Shown here in pieces: positions 2,527 through 53,535 of a DNA stretch of 64,000 bases. The notes beneath the pieces are model-generated. The model saw only the letters and a program-made list of their open reading frames with translations. It was not told the origin of the DNA and did no database searches. Source of the DNA: an uncultured Woeseiaceae bacterium (GTDB lineage Bacteria; Pseudomonadota; Gammaproteobacteria; Steroidobacterales; Woeseiaceae); assembly GCA_947258565.1 (NCBI GenBank), contig CAMYJB010000007.1, positions 1-64,000 of the forward strand. The letters are read 5' to 3'. Position 1 is the stretch's first letter, and the number at the start of each line of letters is the position of its first letter. A program made the position numbers and the translations under genes.

Positions 2527-3918
2527 ATGAGCGAGCAAGCTCACAAACTCCTGATCGTAGAGGATGATCCGGGACTACTCAGCCAGTTGCGCTGGTGTTT
2601 CGAAGACTACGACGTGTGCACGGCCGGCGATCGCGAGGCTGCGATCGCAGAACTCAGGCGCCACGAACCGGCCGTCGTGTTACAGGACCTCGGACTGCCG
2701 CCCAGGCCCGACGGGGTGGAAGAGGGCCTGCTCACGCTGGCAGAGATTCTCAAGCTCTCTCCGTCCACCAAGGTAATCGTCGTTACGGGCCACGGCGACC
2801 AGGAGAACGCGCTGCGTGCCGTGGCGCTCGGCGCCTACGATTTCTACCAGAAGCCCGTCGACACGGACACGCTCAAGCTGATCGTCGAACGGGCATTCAG
2901 CATCAGTCACCTCGAGGCCGAAAACCGCCGGCTGCAGGAAGTGACCAGCGACTCGCCGCTCGACGGCATCGTCGCCGCGAGTGAGGGCATGCTGGCCGTT
3001 TGTCGCATGATCGAGAAAGTCGCGCCTACGGACGTCACGACGCTGCTGCTGGGCGAATCGGGCACCGGCAAGGAGTTGCTGGCCCGGTCCCTGCATCGCC
3101 TGAGCCCGCGCAAGGAAAACGCTTTCGTGGCCATCAACTGTGCGGCGATTCCGGAAAACCTGCTCGAGTCGGAGCTCTTCGGTCACGAGAAAGGCGCGTT
3201 CACGGATGCGGTCAAGACCACGCCCGGTAAGGTGGAACTCGCTGACGGCGGCACGTTGTTCCTCGACGAGATCGGCGACATGCCGCTGCCCCTGCAGGCC
3301 AAGATCCTGCGGTTCCTGCAGGAGCGGGTGATCGAGCGCGTCGGCGGCCGGCAGGAAATCTCCGTGGACGTACGCGTCGTCTGCGCGACCAACCAGAACC
3401 CCGAAGACCTCATCAAGGCCAGCGCGTTCCGCGAGGATCTCTACTATCGCGTCAGCGAGATCACGATCAACATCCCACCGTACCGGGAGCGCGAGGAAGG
3501 GCGCCTCATCCTCGCGCGCACGCTGCTGCAAAACTACTGCAAGAAACAGGGCAGGGCGCTCAACGGCTTCAGCGACGACGCCATCAAGGCCGTCGAGTCA
3601 TACTCCTGGCCGGGCAACGTGCGTGAGCTCGAAAACAAGATCAAGGGCGCCGTCATCATGGCCGACGGCAAACTGGTCACGGCATCGGACCTGGGCCTGG
3701 AGCCGGGCGACGGGGAGCCGGAATCCCTGAACCTGCGCGAAGTCCGGCAACGCGCCGAGTCGAAAGCGATCCGCGTCGCCCTGACGCGCAGCTACGGCAA
3801 TATCTCCAAGGCGGCGGAACTGCTCGGCATCACCCGGCCGACGCTCTACGACCTCATGAACAAGTACGGGCTGACTGCGGAAGCCTATTCCAAGAAGAGC
3901 GTCGTCAACGCCAACTGA
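2527..3918 (+). CDS. prsR: Sigma-54-dependent response regulator, PrsR-like (PEP-CTERM/exosortase regulator family)
   Basis: 463-residue NtrC-type activator. An N-terminal receiver (KLLIVEDDPGL; phospho-acceptor Asp in LQDLGLPPRPDG) is followed by an AAA+ domain with Walker A GESGTGKE and Walker B GTLFLDEIG, then a Fis-type helix-turn-helix (ISKAAELLGITRPTLYDL). The receiver wording, especially QLRWCF and DLGLPPRPDG, resembles PrsR, the regulator of PEP-CTERM/exosortase gene sets. Start 2527 is preferred over 2494 because GAAGGA lies just upstream. The sigma-54 contact loop reads GAFTDA (residues 223-228) instead of GAFTGA. No PrsK-type kinase or exosortase gene is adjacent, so it is an orphan here. 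The family call is from recall of conserved wording and is fairly confident. Confidence 0.78.
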   Translation: MSEQAHKLLIVEDDPGLLSQLRWCFEDYDVCTAGDREAAIAELRRHEPAVVLQDLGLPPRPDGVEEGLLTLAEILKLSPSTKVIVVTGHGDQENALRAVALGAYDFYQKPVDTDTLKLIVERAFSISHLEAENRRLQEVTSDSPLDGIVAASEGMLAVCRMIEKVAPTDVTTLLLGESGTGKELLARSLHRLSPRKENAFVAINCAAIPENLLESELFGHEKGAFTDAVKTTPGKVELADGGTLFLDEIGDMPLPLQAKILRFLQERVIERVGGRQEISVDVRVVCATNQNPEDLIKASAFREDLYYRVSEITINIPPYREREEGRLILARTLLQNYCKKQGRALNGFSDDAIKAVESYSWPGNVRELENKIKGAVIMADGKLVTASDLGLEPGDGEPESLNLREVRQRAESKAIRVALTRSYGNISKAAELLGITRPTLYDLMNKYGLTAEAYSKKSVVNAN

Positions 3919-3944
3919 ATCAGTTCGGACGGCGCAATCCTATC

Positions 3945-5297
3945 TCAGCGGGTTTTGAACTGGTCCGGGTTCAGGTCGTGGCGCGCCAGCAGCTTGTAGA
4001 AATCGGTGCGATTGCGTTTCGCGAGCCGCGCCGCCTGGCTTACGTTACCCGTGGTGATCTGCAGGATCTGCGACAGGTAGTTGCGTGTAAACTCGTCCCG
4101 TGCGTCGCTGAAGGACAGCAGCTTGCCCGAATGTTCGCCGAGCGACTGCTGCACGAGCTCGGCCGAGATGACGGGCGAGCGTGACAGTGCGACGTTCTGC
4201 CGCACCACATTGTAGAGCTGGCGGATGTTACCCGGCCATTCGGCCGTGACCAGCATCTCGACCGCTTCCGGCGCATAGACTTTTCGTTCCTGGCCCGCCT
4301 CTCGAGCGATCTGCTGCAGGAAGTGGGCAACGAGCAGCGGAATGTCCTCGCGGCGCTGGTCGAGCGTCGGGATCTTGATATTGACGACGTTCAGCCGATA
4401 GTAGAGATCCTCGCGGAACTTGCCTTCGCCCATGAGTTCCTGCAGGTCACGGTGCGTCGCCGAGATGACCCGCACGTCGACGTCGATCGCGTCGGTGCTG
4501 CCGACCGGGCGTACCTGGTGTTCCTGCAGCACGCGCAGCAGCTTGACCTGCAGCCGCATCGGCATGTCGCCGATCTCGTCGAGCAGCAGCGTACCGCCCT
4601 CGGCCGCCTGGAACAGGCCCTTGTGGCTGCGCGTGGCGCCCGTGAATGCGCCTTTCTCGTGGCCGAAGAGCTCCGACTCAAGCAGGTTCTCGGCCATGGC
4701 CGAACAGTTGATCGCCACGAACGGCTGCGAGTGCCGCGGGCTGGCATTATGAATGGCTCTCGCGAGCAGTTCCTTGCCGGTGCCGCTCTCGCCGTTGATG
4801 AGGACGCGCGCGTCGGTCGCCGCAACCATCTTGGCCTGGTTGAGGATCTCCTTCATGGCCTGGTTGCGCGTGATGATCTCAGCCGACCAGTCTTCCTCGA
4901 CTTCGACCGAGCCGGACACCTTGATGGCCTTTTTCACGGTCTGCATGAGCTCGTCTTTGTCGATCGGCTTCGTGAGGAAACCGAAGGCGCCACTCTGGGT
5001 CGCCACGACCGCGTCCGGAATGGTGCCGTGCGCGGTGATGATCACGACCCGCAGGCCCGGCGAGCGGGTCTGAAGTTCCTTCAGCAGCCCGATGCCATCC
5101 ATCTTGTCCATGCGCAGGTCGGTGATCACGAGGTCGGGGCTGAAGCGATTGAGGATCGCCAGCGCCTTGTGCGCGGACTCGACGGCCTCGACCTCGTAGC
5201 CCTCGGCGCGCAGGCGGATCGATAGCAGCCGGAGCAGTCCGGGATCGTCGTCAACGAGCAGTATTTTTCCCTCGGTACCGGGATTCTTGTTGGCCAT
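3945..5297 (-). CDS. glrR: Sigma-54-dependent response regulator GlrR (QseF)
   Basis: 450-residue response regulator of the GlrK/GlrR (QseE/QseF) envelope-stress system. Receiver domain (KILLVDDDPGL; Asp in LVITDLRMDKMDG), AAA+ domain with Walker A GESGTGKE, canonical GAFTGA loop and Walker B GTLLLDEIGD, then a C-terminal Fis-type HTH (NVSQAARLAKRNRTDFYKLL). It is the third gene of glrK-qseG-glrR on the minus strand, the same order as in Escherichia coli. In enterobacteria GlrR drives glmY and rpoE promoters; its targets here are unknown. A 101-bp gap separates it from qseG. Its 3' end faces the PrsR-like gene with only 26 bp between the stop codons. Confidence 0.92.
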   Translation of the reverse strand: MANKNPGTEGKILLVDDDPGLLRLLSIRLRAEGYEVEAVESAHKALAILNRFSPDLVITDLRMDKMDGIGLLKELQTRSPGLRVVIITAHGTIPDAVVATQSGAFGFLTKPIDKDELMQTVKKAIKVSGSVEVEEDWSAEIITRNQAMKEILNQAKMVAATDARVLINGESGTGKELLARAIHNASPRHSQPFVAINCSAMAENLLESELFGHEKGAFTGATRSHKGLFQAAEGGTLLLDEIGDMPMRLQVKLLRVLQEHQVRPVGSTDAIDVDVRVISATHRDLQELMGEGKFREDLYYRLNVVNIKIPTLDQRREDIPLLVAHFLQQIAREAGQERKVYAPEAVEMLVTAEWPGNIRQLYNVVRQNVALSRSPVISAELVQQSLGEHSGKLLSFSDARDEFTRNYLSQILQITTGNVSQAARLAKRNRTDFYKLLARHDLNPDQFKTR

Positions 5298-32202: not shown

Positions 32203-33099
32203 ATGGCACAGGACCTGGAAGTCGCAATCCTCTTTGCCGACGTGGTTGGCAGCACTCAGCTGTACGACAAGTTCGGCGATACCAAGGCCAGCGAGACCGT
32301 TGCGTTGTGCCTCGATGTCATGAAAGACGCTACCCACAACTACAGCGGCACCGTCATCAAGACGATTGGTGATGAAGTCATGTCGACCTTTGCGACCGTT
32401 GACGACGCCATGGGTGCCGCGGTAATGATGCAGTCCCGGATATCCACGGAAAGCCGGCAGGGCGGCCGCATTCCGGTCTCCATCCGGGTGGGTTGCCATT
32501 TCGGGCCGGTCGTGCAGGAGCAGAATGACATTTTCGGGGCCGCCGTGCATACGGCCAATCGCATGACATCGCAGGCGAAATCGCGGCAGATCGTTATTTC
32601 CGGCGAGACCGTCGAGAAGATGAGCCCGAAACTGCAGGAACAGACGCGGCAGATCGACGTCGCCACCGTGCGCGGCAAAATGGACGAAGTTGCTCTCTAT
32701 GAGTTGCTCTGGAATCCCGAAGAAGCGACGAGCATGCTGCCCACGATCGAGTGGGAGAATCGCGGTCGCAAGGCATCGCGCATGGTACTGAGTGTCCGCG
32801 ACCAGACCGTCGAAGTCAGCGACAAGCGCAAGAGTGTGAATATCGGCCGTGCCGACGACAACGACCTCGTGGTGAAGGGTAATCTTATCTCACGCATTCA
32901 TGCCAAGATCGAACTACGCCGCGGCAAGTTCATTCTCGTCGACCAGAGTACCAACGGTACTTTCCTGCAGAATTTGCAGGGTGAGGAGACGTTTGTTCGC
33001 CGCGATTCCACTGAACTGCACGACGAAGGCACGATAGGGCTCGGCCGTGTGGAGCAGCCGGGCGACAGCCTGGCGATCCACTTCAAAGCCATCGACTAA
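32203..33099 (+). CDS. Class III adenylate/guanylate cyclase fused to an FHA domain
   Basis: 298 residues. Residues about 1-165 form a class III nucleotide cyclase domain: the metal-binding Asp in ILFADVVGSTQ and the second in KTIGDEVMS, and the NDIFGAAVHTANRM segment, suggest adenylate cyclase. Residues about 190-298 are an FHA domain (NIGRADDNDLVVKG, ISRIHAKIE, STNGTFLQN) that binds phosphothreonine peptides. There are no membrane segments. It would make a cyclic nucleotide under control of a phosphorylated partner, which suggests a Ser/Thr kinase elsewhere. The stop codon is the first part of a 36-bp palindrome shared with pckG. The nucleotide product is inferred from family residues only. 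Confidence 0.85.
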   Translation: MAQDLEVAILFADVVGSTQLYDKFGDTKASETVALCLDVMKDATHNYSGTVIKTIGDEVMSTFATVDDAMGAAVMMQSRISTESRQGGRIPVSIRVGCHFGPVVQEQNDIFGAAVHTANRMTSQAKSRQIVISGETVEKMSPKLQEQTRQIDVATVRGKMDEVALYELLWNPEEATSMLPTIEWENRGRKASRMVLSVRDQTVEVSDKRKSVNIGRADDNDLVVKGNLISRIHAKIELRRGKFILVDQSTNGTFLQNLQGEETFVRRDSTELHDEGTIGLGRVEQPGDSLAIHFKAID

Positions 33100-33171
33100 C
33101 AATTAGGGGACAGTGACTTAAAGTGCCAGGCACCAGTGCCTGGCACTTTAAGTCACTGTCCCCTAATTGTT
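33098..33171. repeat. Perfect palindrome with 36-bp arms between convergent genes
   Basis: Left arm 33098-33133 and right arm 33136-33171 are perfect reverse complements around a 2-bp spacer (CA). It includes AATTAGGGGACAGTGACT and AGTGCCAGGCAC. The arms end within the two stop codons: the cyclase TAA (33097-33099) and the pckG TTA/TAA (33171-33173). The RNA would fold into a very long hairpin that could terminate both genes. The wording resembles dispersed REP/BIME-like repeats that I have seen in many proteobacterial genomes, possibly spread by REP-associated transposases; this is recollection, not a search result. Confidence 0.85.
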
Positions 33172-34931
33172 TAGCGCGGCCAGTCTACCGCGTCCAGCTC
33201 CGACTTGATGCGCTGCTGCTCGTCGAGCAAGGCCTGCGGCGTGCGGTCACCAAAGGTCTCGAGGTACTCGCCGATGGCGTCCATTTCCTCGGCCCAGGTC
33301 ACCGGGTTGATCGTCGTGAGCTTGCGTATCGTCGCCGCGTCGATGTCGAGTTCCGAGGTGTCGATATCCTCGGCATTGGGAAGAAAGCCGATCGGCGTCT
33401 CGCGCGCTTCGACGCGACCCTCGACGCGATCGATGATCCAGCGCAGTACGCGCAGGTTCTCGCCGAAACCGGGCCAGATGAACTTGCCGTCCTCATCCTG
33501 GCGGAACCAGTTGACGTGGAAGATCCCCGGCAGCTTGCTGGTGCGCTTTGGAAACGACAGCCAGTGCGACCAGTAGTCGCCGAAGTTGTAGCCGCAGAAC
33601 GGCTTCATGGCCATCGGATCGCGGCGCACCACGCCCACTTCGCCGACCATCGCCGCTGTGGTCTCCGATGCGACGCTGGCGCCGACGAAGACACCGTGCT
33701 GCCAGTCCTTCGCTTCGTACACCAGCGGTGCGAGTTCCTTGCGCCGGCCGCCGAAGACGATGGCCGAGATCGGCACGCCCTCGGGGGCATCCGCGAGCTT
33801 GGAGTAGCTCGGGTTGTTGGTTGCGGCAGCCGTGAATCGCGAATTCGGGTGTGCGGCCGGGCCGTTCGCCGCATCGTATTCGCGCCCCTGCCAGTCGTAC
33901 GCGGGTTCGCCGATTTTCTTGCCTTCCCACCACGGCTTGTTGTCCGCGGTGCGCGCCACGTTCGTGAAGATCGTGTTGTGGTGGATCATGTCGAACGCGT
34001 TCTTGTTGGTTTTCTCGTTGGTGCCGGGCACGACGCCGAAATAGCCGGACTCCGGGTTTATGGCACGCAGAACTCCGTCCTCATCGAGGTGCAGCCAGGC
34101 TATGTCGTCGCCCAGCGTCCAGATCTTCCAGCCGGGCATCGAGTGCGGCGGAATCAGCATCGCGAGATTGGTCTTGCCGCAGGCCGACGGGAAGGCGCAG
34201 GCGATGTAGTGGGTTTCGCCGTCCGGGCTCTCGATCCCCATCAGCAGCATGTGCTCGGCCAGCCAGCCCTCGGTCCGGGCCTGGTGGCTGGCGATCCTGA
34301 GTGCGTGGCACTTCTTGCCGAGCAACGCGTTGCCCCCATAGCCGGAGCCGAAGCTCTGGATCGAGAGTTCCTCCGGGAAATGCACGATGAAGCGCCGCTC
34401 GGGATCGAGATCCCCCGTGGAGTGCAGCCCTTTTACGAAAGTGCCTTCGCGCTCAATCCTCGCGAGCGCGTCGCCGCCCATGCGCGTCATCATCTCCATG
34501 TTGATGACCACGTACGGGCTGTCGGTAATCTCGACGCCGCAGCGTGAATAGGGCGAGTCGATCGGGCCCATGCAGTACGGAATCACGTACATCGTCCGAC
34601 CGCGCATTGCACCGTCGAACAGCGCATCCATCTTCGCGTGCGCCTCGTCCGGGCTCATCCAGTTGTTGTTGGGGCCGGCGTCTTCCTGCTCCGGTGTGCA
34701 GACGAAAGTCAGGTGCTCGACACGGGCGACGTCATTGGGGTTCGACAAGTGCAGGTAACAGTTCGGATAGCCGTTATCGTTGAGCGCGGACAGCGTGCCT
34801 GTCTCGATCATCTCGGCAATGAGACGGTGGTACTCCGCAGATCCTCCGTTGCACCAGTGAACGGAGTCGGGTTGCGTGAGTTCTGCGATCTGGTCGACCC
34901 ATTCCTTGAGGGCCGGGAGCTTGGTAGTCAT
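33171..34931 (-). CDS. pckG: Phosphoenolpyruvate carboxykinase (GTP)
   Basis: 586-residue GTP-dependent PEP carboxykinase, which decarboxylates oxaloacetate to PEP for gluconeogenesis. The hyper-reactive Cys and P-loop appear in AFPSACGKTNLAML. SFGSGYGGNALLGKKC, WTLGDDIAWLHLDEDG, NPESGYFGVVPGTN and KPFCGYNFGDYW are classic GTP-type signatures. The start at 34931 (MTTKLPALKEW) matches family N-termini; an open frame extends to 34970. The gene ends in the 36-bp palindrome that also ends the convergent cyclase gene. GTP-type enzymes are less common than the ATP type in gammaproteobacteria but occur in several environmental lineages. Confidence 0.96.
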   Translation of the reverse strand: MTTKLPALKEWVDQIAELTQPDSVHWCNGGSAEYHRLIAEMIETGTLSALNDNGYPNCYLHLSNPNDVARVEHLTFVCTPEQEDAGPNNNWMSPDEAHAKMDALFDGAMRGRTMYVIPYCMGPIDSPYSRCGVEITDSPYVVINMEMMTRMGGDALARIEREGTFVKGLHSTGDLDPERRFIVHFPEELSIQSFGSGYGGNALLGKKCHALRIASHQARTEGWLAEHMLLMGIESPDGETHYIACAFPSACGKTNLAMLIPPHSMPGWKIWTLGDDIAWLHLDEDGVLRAINPESGYFGVVPGTNEKTNKNAFDMIHHNTIFTNVARTADNKPWWEGKKIGEPAYDWQGREYDAANGPAAHPNSRFTAAATNNPSYSKLADAPEGVPISAIVFGGRRKELAPLVYEAKDWQHGVFVGASVASETTAAMVGEVGVVRRDPMAMKPFCGYNFGDYWSHWLSFPKRTSKLPGIFHVNWFRQDEDGKFIWPGFGENLRVLRWIIDRVEGRVEARETPIGFLPNAEDIDTSELDIDAATIRKLTTINPVTWAEEMDAIGEYLETFGDRTPQALLDEQQRIKSELDAVDWPR

Positions 34932-35091
34932 AATTCTAATGCCGGACGTCGGGAATCGTGGGGGCGGCATTATACCGGGAATGCATACGATTGCAGCCCG
35001 TGTTTTCCGAACTTGATTTGTGCGCGAACCTCGCCGCCGGGGCCGGTAATGCGATACCCAATGCGGGGTTCAAGCGTGTACCCTGTCGCTC

Positions 35092-53432: not shown

Positions 53433-53488
53433 GCGCGCGCCCTAGAGGCAATTAATCCACACGCATACCGTCACATCGCACTGGGTGC

Positions 53489-53535
53489 CCCAACGAAAAA
53501 GGGGTTGGGCGATGGGGTTTGCGGAGGCCTAACCC
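53489..53535 (+). promoter_or_regulatory. Structured leader of rpsB, possible S2 autoregulatory element
   Basis: Two stem-loops can form in the leader: CCCAAC/GTTGGG (53489-53494 with 53504-53509) and GGGTT/AACCC (53515-53519 with 53531-53535), ending directly before the GGAGA ribosome site (53536-53540). Ribosomal protein S2 leaders are known to autoregulate in gammaproteobacteria. Whether this one belongs to that RNA family was not tested. Confidence 0.4.

What the first reader, a model, noticed from the sequence alone, without database searches (positions are those of the whole stretch)
33098..33171. Perfect 36-bp-arm palindrome exactly spanning the gap of two convergent genes
Arms of 36 bp with a 2-bp loop start in one stop codon and end in the other. 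A chance origin is implausible. The repeat wording (GGGGACAGTGACT, GTGCCAGGCAC) resembles dispersed REP/BIME elements. The element may have inserted so precisely that it now supplies the terminator and possibly part of both stops. No transposase lies nearby, so it would be a non-autonomous repeat.
Basis: partly seen in the sequence, partly recalled or inferred. Interest (0 to 1): 0.55.

Follow-up and report, generated by a model that had tools for sequence, protein, structure and literature searches.

The report
Mobile-repeat hairpin between two converging genes
A perfect DNA palindrome filling the gap between two genes that run toward each other is one of dozens of copies of a small mobile repeat, apparently spread by a single transposase gene elsewhere in the genome; such repeats are a known kind, but related bacteria often fill the same gap with different ones.

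Summary
The palindrome is real: 36-bp perfect arms, 2-nt centre, 33098-33171. It is not unique: the arm occurs at 84 places in this 3.48-Mb genome against 0 for the reversed control, mostly as inverted pairs. The genome has one detected Y1/HUH transposase gene, on another contig, bracketed by the same arm, its stop codon inside that arm. The palindrome is therefore best read as a non-autonomous terminal-inverted-repeat (TIR) dimer of a 'TIRtron' (PMC3733652), REP-like but with a GGGGWSAS head instead of the GTAG foot of classical REP/BIMEs. The element proper is about 33101-33168; the outer 3 bp of each arm look like chance, and both stop codons belong to the host genes here. Of 42 element sites 17 are convergent, 22 unidirectional, 1 divergent, 2 at contig edges. 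At least 33 of 42 are shared with the sister species. Other congeners fill this same gap with other palindromes, two of them shown to be dispersed in their host (G036, G041). A second conserved convergent gap behaves alike. A role as a bidirectional terminator is plausible but unproven. New member of a known kind.

The parts
33098..33171 (.). Perfect palindrome, 36-bp arms and 2-nt centre (TIR dimer plus 3 probably chance-paired bases on each side)
33101..33168 (.). Element proper: AATTA-GGGGACAGTGACTTAAAGTGCCAGGCAC-CA-mirror-TAATT
   Evidence: family consensus and loss of conservation beyond -5
33106..33133 (+). Left TIR unit, GGGGWSAS-type head
33136..33163 (-). Right TIR unit, inverted
32203..33099 (+). 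Upstream convergent gene: adenylate/guanylate cyclase plus FHA domain protein, stop TAA 33097-33099
33171..34970 (-). Convergent gene: GTP-dependent phosphoenolpyruvate carboxykinase, stop at 33171-33173 (start codon uncertain; the gene caller prefers 34931)

Best explanation
The palindrome is one copy of a family of about 40 miniature elements. Most are two inverted TIR units (AATTA-GGGGACAGTGACTTTAAGTGCCAGGC...). The family is the non-autonomous offspring of a single TIRtron: a Y1 (HUH/tyrosine) REP-type transposase gene on contig C11 of the same genome, flanked by the same TIRs. Shown: dispersal, arm identity with the transposase's flanks, inverted-pair organisation, differences in sites and unit numbers between sister species, co-variation of the two arms, and preference for gene 3' ends. 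Inferred: the transposase recognises the GGGG foot and hairpin of single-stranded DNA and copies the dimer as a unit. Also inferred: copies survive mainly just behind stop codons, above all between convergent genes, because there a long symmetric hairpin is harmless, or useful as a two-way transcription end and mRNA 3'-end stabiliser.
For: 84 arm places vs 0 control. One PF01797 match in a 99.69%-complete genome, with an inverted 28-nt arm (2 mismatches allowed) on both sides and the gene's stop codon inside the arm. The protein matches Y1_Tnp, NCBIfam REP_Tyr_transpos at 77.7 bits and TnpA-REP 4er8 at E 4.5e-8. Transposase dN/dS 0.18 vs the sister. Of 42 sites (two of them the transposase's own flanks) 17 are convergent, 22 unidirectional, 1 divergent, 2 contig edge, against 6, 36 and 7 of 49 gene pairs in the window; binomial p 1.7e-6 for convergent among the 40 classed, treating 6/49 as exact. 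At least 33 of 42 sites shared with sister G059. In G000 the arms of a dimer are identical in 30 of 34 vs shuffled mean 17.9, max 24 of 2000. Between species, in 15 dimer pairs, 8 double-sided arm changes vs 0.6 expected if independent, 7 keeping the pair. Of 61 genomes only G000 and G059 have more than 40 arm places, each with one transposase gene; G035 has 7 mostly diverged matches and no Y1 gene found.
Against: No transposition was observed. The clearest empty site (C6:78751) does not give a crisp boundary. The protein scores under NCBIfam's curated cut-off, 77.7 vs 80 bits. The arm-agreement test is weaker in the sister: identical arms in 15 of 25 dimers vs shuffled mean 11.9, max 17, so not beyond the shuffles on that measure, though mismatches (18) are below every shuffle (minimum 20). 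12 arm positions changed on one side only. Against a larger background, the fetched G000 stretches with the elements' own junctions included, convergent pairs are 28 of 120, so the excess is smaller than against the window. The terminator role is not supported by the simple scan; 23 of 76 dimer exits have 5 or more T in the next 8 bases, though both exits of this copy have 5. Co-varying arms could also come from replacement of whole units or template-switch correction, so they do not prove selection on the hairpin.
Confidence: 0.85

Rival explanations
1. An ordinary bidirectional intrinsic terminator of the two genes that happens to be a long perfect hairpin.
For: Position between two stops, very stable hairpin, 5 of 8 T after CCCC on both strands. 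Long palindromes of several kinds sit here in congeners. Stem-loops in general prefer convergent gaps in bacteria (PMC1590033, passages seen).
Against: The same arm occurs at 84 places and brackets a transposase gene. In many congeners the gap is 0-20 bp without such a palindrome. The intrinsic-terminator scan found none.
Confidence: 0.06
2. A classical GTAG-type REP/BIME or REPIN of a GTAG-type RAYT.
For: Inverted doublets, dispersed, extragenic, a Y1 transposase, compensatory arm changes, as in REPINs (PMC3116915, passages seen).
Against: No GT[AG]G foot; the head is GGGGACAG. Transposase motifs NHVH and YVELNP are closer to subclass 2.1 (NHVH, YIELNP or Y[IV]HLNP) than to subclasses 2.2 or 2.5 as tabulated in PMC6006769. 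GTAGGAGC-type REPs occur separately in congeners.
Confidence: 0.05
3. A MITE of an unrelated DDE-type IS whose TIRs happen to match the flanks of the Y1 gene.
For: TIRs of about 28 bp around a short spacer are MITE-like. No search for DDE-type elements with these ends was made.
Against: The arm also holds the Y1 gene's stop codon. Y1 relatives from many phyla carry their own inverted arms: 53 of 79 loci vs 3-8 of 79 in a mismatched-flank control. No target duplication stood out by eye in the sites listed; C8:77485 reads AATT on both sides, which is also its own inverse.
Confidence: 0.03

Closest known systems
TIRtron / TIRYT repeats (Di Nocera, De Gregorio, Rocco 2013, PMC3733652; abstract, sections 15-16 and passages read)
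   Same: Y1 transposase gene flanked by long TIRs with a GGGGWSAS head; dispersed TIR copies as singles, dimers and groups. For REPs that paper also reports 3'-end location and termini that provide stop codons, both seen here for the TIR family.
   Different: Nothing essential. Here one transposase goes with about 40 mostly dimeric copies, and site sharing and turnover against a sister species are documented.
REPINs with RAYTs (Bertels and Rainey 2011, PMC3116915; passages seen)
   Same: Inverted doublets form the unit, spacer variable, compensatory changes on both sides, transposase in trans.
   Different: TIR head GGGG instead of a GTAG-footed REP; the two arms of this copy form one continuous 36-bp perfect stem.
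TnpA-Y1 subclass 2.1 (Quentin et al. 2018, PMC6006769; abstract, section 12 and part 1 of section 15 read)
   Same: NHVH motif, YVELNP close to the tabulated YIELNP, length 227 aa vs median 238.
   Different: That paper reports no REP-like sequences near subclass 2.1 genes in its own searches; here the inverted arms are plain. A C-terminal helix-turn-helix was not detected by Pfam.

Membership tests
TIRtron / TIR repeat family | Y1 (HUH) tyrosine transposase gene in the genome | tested here: met
   One PF01797 match, E 1.4e-13, over cut-off; motifs NHVH and YVELNP read from the translation
TIRtron / TIR repeat family | Transposase gene flanked by inverted copies of the repeat | tested here: met
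   28-nt inverted arm at L031 1353 and 2122 (2 mismatches allowed); also in sister G059 (27 nt)
TIRtron / TIR repeat family | GGGGWSAS head | tested here: met
   GGGGACAG in the consensus; positions 2-8 at 1.00 and position 1 at 0.96 in the arms of the 34 G000 dimers used
TIRtron / TIR repeat family | Repeat dispersed beyond the transposase gene, often as dimers | tested here: met
   84 arm places, 39 inverted dimers in the fetched stretches
TIRtron / TIR repeat family | Transposase cuts or binds the TIR | not testable with these tools
   needs biochemistry
TnpA-Y1 subclass 2.1 | NHVH / W[EQ] / YIELNP-like motifs | tested here: met
   NHVH, WQ, YVELNP against the table in PMC6006769, by eye; V for I in the tyrosine motif
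TnpA-Y1 subclass 2.1 | C-terminal helix-turn-helix-like domain | tested here: inconclusive
   Pfam finds only Y1_Tnp, residues 17-124; no fold was predicted
Classical GTAG REP / BIME | GT[AG]G tetranucleotide at the foot of the hairpin | tested here: not met
   AATTAGGGGACAG consensus
REPIN (doublet of inverted repeats as the unit) | Arms of a pair more alike than arms of different pairs | tested here: met
   G000: identical in 30 of 34 vs shuffled mean 17.9, max 24; G059: 15 of 25 vs 11.9, max 17, with mismatches below every shuffle
Rho-independent terminator | Stem, loop of 3-8, then T-run | tested here: inconclusive
   Scan: none found; 5 of 8 T directly after CCCC on both strands

The most novel reading that the evidence does not exclude
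Conserved convergent gene junctions act as standing docking sites for this whole superfamily. Species after species, a different TIR family with its own cognate transposase (or a GTAG REP) re-colonises the same junction, where it works as a portable two-way transcription end, so that the slot is conserved while the occupant turns over. Arm co-variation in place would then reflect selection on the hairpin.
Probability: 0.35. Interest if true: 0.55.

Novelty: new member of a known kind. Interest (0 to 1): 0.36.

Why it matters
It turns a puzzling perfect palindrome into a mobile-element copy with an identified candidate transposase. It also gives a comparative system, congeneric species with different TIR families in the same gene junctions, in which one can test whether such repeats are merely tolerated at 3' ends or are used by the host as exchangeable bidirectional terminators.

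Tried and rejected
Rfam at gathering threshold finds nothing at the palindrome. 'Unique terminator' was rejected. 'Element supplies both stops here' was rejected by the family consensus and the sister sequence. A target duplication was looked for by eye in the listed sites and none stood out; the outer flanks tend to be inverted, not direct, repeats.

The first two control gaps (window 25999/26060 and 19110/19144) turned out not to be conserved convergent pairs. They were used only as 3'-end controls; a first script crashed halfway and was redone. A third control (3918/3945), chosen as a repeat-free convergent gap, proved in other species to be occupied too, which argues against the focal gap being special and for convergent gaps in general. 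The REPIN-bearing convergent site C6:60441 was searched, but 14 of 61 genomes matched and it was not analysed further. G006's gap palindrome looked like a TIR but is nearly private (4 places, two of them the gap itself) and does not match the arms of its transposase gene. No structure prediction was run, and no search for DDE transposases with these ends. The organism was not identified: the named-genome scan (best 80 of 548 kept) returns relatives of the transposase at 59% identity or less and may leave out the window's own genome.

CHECK AGAINST THE CALLS: on recounting I corrected the C6 cluster from thirteen to twelve sites, added the weaker arm-agreement result of the sister and the larger gene-pair background, and softened 'loops replaced'.

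Full report
WHAT IS THERE. The window holds a perfect palindrome at 33098-33171: arms of 36 bp, 2-nt centre. As RNA it folds at -67.9 kcal/mol against a shuffle mean of -22.65 (z -12.4, 0 of 200 shuffles as good). It fills the 71-bp gap between the stop of an adenylate cyclase-FHA gene (+, 32203-33099) and the stop of a GTP-type PEP carboxykinase gene (-, 33171-34970). Rfam at gathering threshold has no family at the place.

IT IS A DISPERSED REPEAT. The pattern GGGGACAGTGACTTAAAGTG with up to 3 mismatches occurs at 84 places in the window's own genome (3.48 Mb, 53 contigs, 99.69% complete), 40 forward and 44 reverse; the reversed control occurs 0 times. In the fetched stretches most are inverted pairs, with some triplets, quadruplets and single arms. 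Consensus: AATTA-GGGGACAGTGACTTTAAGTGCCAG...; of 39 inverted dimers 32 have 9-29 nt between 24-nt arms. Outside GGGG five bases are biased (A-A-T-T-A) and no base dominates from the sixth on. The element here is therefore about 33101-33168. The outermost three pairs, which carry the palindrome into both stop codons, look like chance; in the sister species the + gene ends in TAG and the pairing is interrupted there.

THE TRANSPOSASE. A Y1_Tnp (PF01797) search finds one match in the genome, at C11:10176-10499 (the ORF is L044:2129-2812, 227 aa). It is bracketed by an inverted copy of the arm, 28 nt with 2 mismatches allowed. Its stop codon lies inside the downstream arm. The protein matches NCBIfam REP-associated tyrosine transposase at 77.7 bits, under the cut-off of 80, Pfam Y1_Tnp above cut-off and PDB 4er8, TnpA-REP, at E 4.5e-8. 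It carries NHVH and YVELNP. dN/dS to the sister copy is 0.18, against 0.05 for the cyclase-FHA gene, so it is constrained. A scan of named genomes kept the best 80 of 548 relatives, from many phyla by their record titles. Of the 79 with usable flanks on both sides, 53 have inverted arms, 29 of them with a GGGGWSAS head; pairing flanks of different loci gives 3-8 of 79.

SITES. With a codon-usage gene caller of my own, 42 element clusters (two of them the transposase's own flanks) fall as 17 convergent, 22 unidirectional, 1 divergent and 2 at contig edges; none lies wholly inside a called gene. The window's own 49 gene pairs are 6 convergent, 36 unidirectional and 7 divergent. Against that background, taken as exact, the binomial p is 1.7e-6 for the convergent excess and 0.04 for the divergent deficit, among 40 classed. 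In the fetched G000 stretches, which include the elements' own junctions, 28 of 120 pairs are convergent, so the excess is smaller by that measure. By hand count, 48 of 56 facing gene ends lie within 25 bp of the core, and in 19 of 56 the gene's stop codon uses at least one base of the core. At the focal site the stops lie 6 and 7 bp outside it. Stem-loops in general prefer convergent gaps (PMC1590033, passages seen), so the preference need not be special to this family.

TURNOVER AND CO-VARIATION. In 61 genomes of the genus the 22-base arm pattern (2 mismatches) is found in 6. Only G000 (84) and its sister G059 (84) have a real population; G035 has 7 mostly diverged matches and three others 1 each. 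G059 has one Y1 gene, in the same neighbourhood; in G035, 95% complete, none was found. At least 33 of 42 G000 sites are shared with G059; only the G059 stretches around its own elements were compared, so the rest are partly unread. At shared sites the arms are nearly unchanged while many loops differ, flank matches are 79-95% identical, and unit numbers change. In the 15 of 29 aligned sites treated as a simple inverted pair there are 8 positions changed on both arms, 7 keeping the pair, against 0.6 expected under independence, and 12 changed on one arm; the loop is identical at 2 of 15, C8:77485 and C11:14502. The focal site is an example: A/T and T/A swap together. Within G000 the arms of a dimer agree fully in 30 of 34 (shuffled mean 17.9, max 24); in G059 in 15 of 25 (mean 11.9, max 17), which does not exceed the shuffles, although the mismatch count does fall below them (18 vs minimum 20). 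Co-varying arms are known for REPINs (PMC3116915, passage seen).

THE SAME GAP ELSEWHERE. The cyclase-FHA/PEPCK junction could be read at 48 loci from 46 of 61 genomes. Seventeen of 48 carry a TIR-like palindrome, a GTAGGAGC-type signature or another long palindrome; one or two of the signatures may be spurious (L061, L204). The occupants differ. G036 has GGGGACAGTCACCCTAACT, which occurs at 34 places in that genome (2 mismatches) and whose near variants flank one of its transposase genes. G041 has GGGGTCAGAGCCC, at 117 places and flanking its transposase gene. G035 has a diverged relative of the focal element on one contig and GTAGGAGC-type sequence on another. G006 has a long palindrome that is nearly private (4 places) and does not match its transposase's arms. 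Several species have a gap of 0-20 bp without such a palindrome. Control 3' ends, scored by the same script but not required to be convergent, show 1 of 24 and 1 of 29; 17/48 vs 2/53 gives Fisher p 6e-5. A second conserved convergent gap (window 3918/3945) was read in 43 genomes and classed by eye and by tblastn, not by that script. Four have TIR-type dimers (G053, G040, G041, G027; the first three match their own transposase's arms; G027's was not fetched). Three have GTAG-type sequence and nine have a Y1 transposase gene or fragment in the gap. So the focal gap is not special; convergent gaps in this genus are repeatedly occupied. Relatedness among the genomes was not corrected for, so the p-values overstate independence.

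HOW IT PROBABLY WORKS. Following the established biology of Y1 transposases and REPs (general knowledge and the papers named), the C11 enzyme would act in trans on single-stranded hairpins formed by the dimers. That step is inferred. New copies would mostly be lost except just behind stop codons. There the hairpin can end or protect transcripts from both sides. For the focal copy the bases after CCCC are 5 of 8 T on both strands, but over the family 23 of 76 exits reach 5, and the standard scan found no terminator. A terminator role therefore remains an inference.

KNOWN OR NEW. Di Nocera et al. 2013 (PMC3733652; abstract, sections 15-16 and passages read) described TIRtrons, TIRYTs, the GGGGWSAS motif and TIR dimers, and for REPs the 3'-end preference and termini that provide stop codons. 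Quentin et al. 2018 (PMC6006769; abstract, section 12 and part 1 of section 15 read) note that 20 of 26 TIRYT examples fall in their subclass 2.1. Nunvar et al. 2013 (PMC3686654; passages seen) report different REP classes around orthologous RAYT genes. The word TIRYT occurs in 2 papers of the library. One search for reports of different repeats in one orthologous convergent gap found none (a single wording), which is weak evidence of novelty.

Noticed in passing
window 3918-3945 and orthologous gaps, e.g. L324, L327, L366-L370, L378, L380: A second convergent gap, between two sigma-54-type response-regulator genes, holds a Y1 transposase gene or fragment in 9 of 43 congeners read and TIR-type dimers in 4 others.
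   Followed up: partly
L059 and L199 (G035 contigs C14 and C87): Two versions of the same gene junction in one assembly, one with a diverged TIR palindrome and one with GTAGGAGC-type sequence: a strain mix or a duplication.
   Followed up: no
G000 contig C6, 41665-85701 (L040-L042): Twelve of the 42 element sites crowd into about 44 kb of one contig; cause unknown.
   Followed up: no
L209 (G047) and L240 (G017): Long near-perfect inverted repeats (arms 42 and 32 nt, 2 and 1 mismatches) without a GGGG or GTAG head in the same gap, with similar loops; possibly another repeat class.
   Followed up: no
window 53440-53533 (+): Rfam t44 RNA (RF00127), 72.5 bits, unrelated to the finding.
   Followed up: no
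L087-L166: Relatives of the transposase from many phyla carry their own inverted arms in 53 of 79 loci (29 with a GGGGWSAS head; control 3-8 of 79), whereas Quentin et al. 2018 found no REP-like sequences near subclass 2.1 genes.
   Followed up: partly
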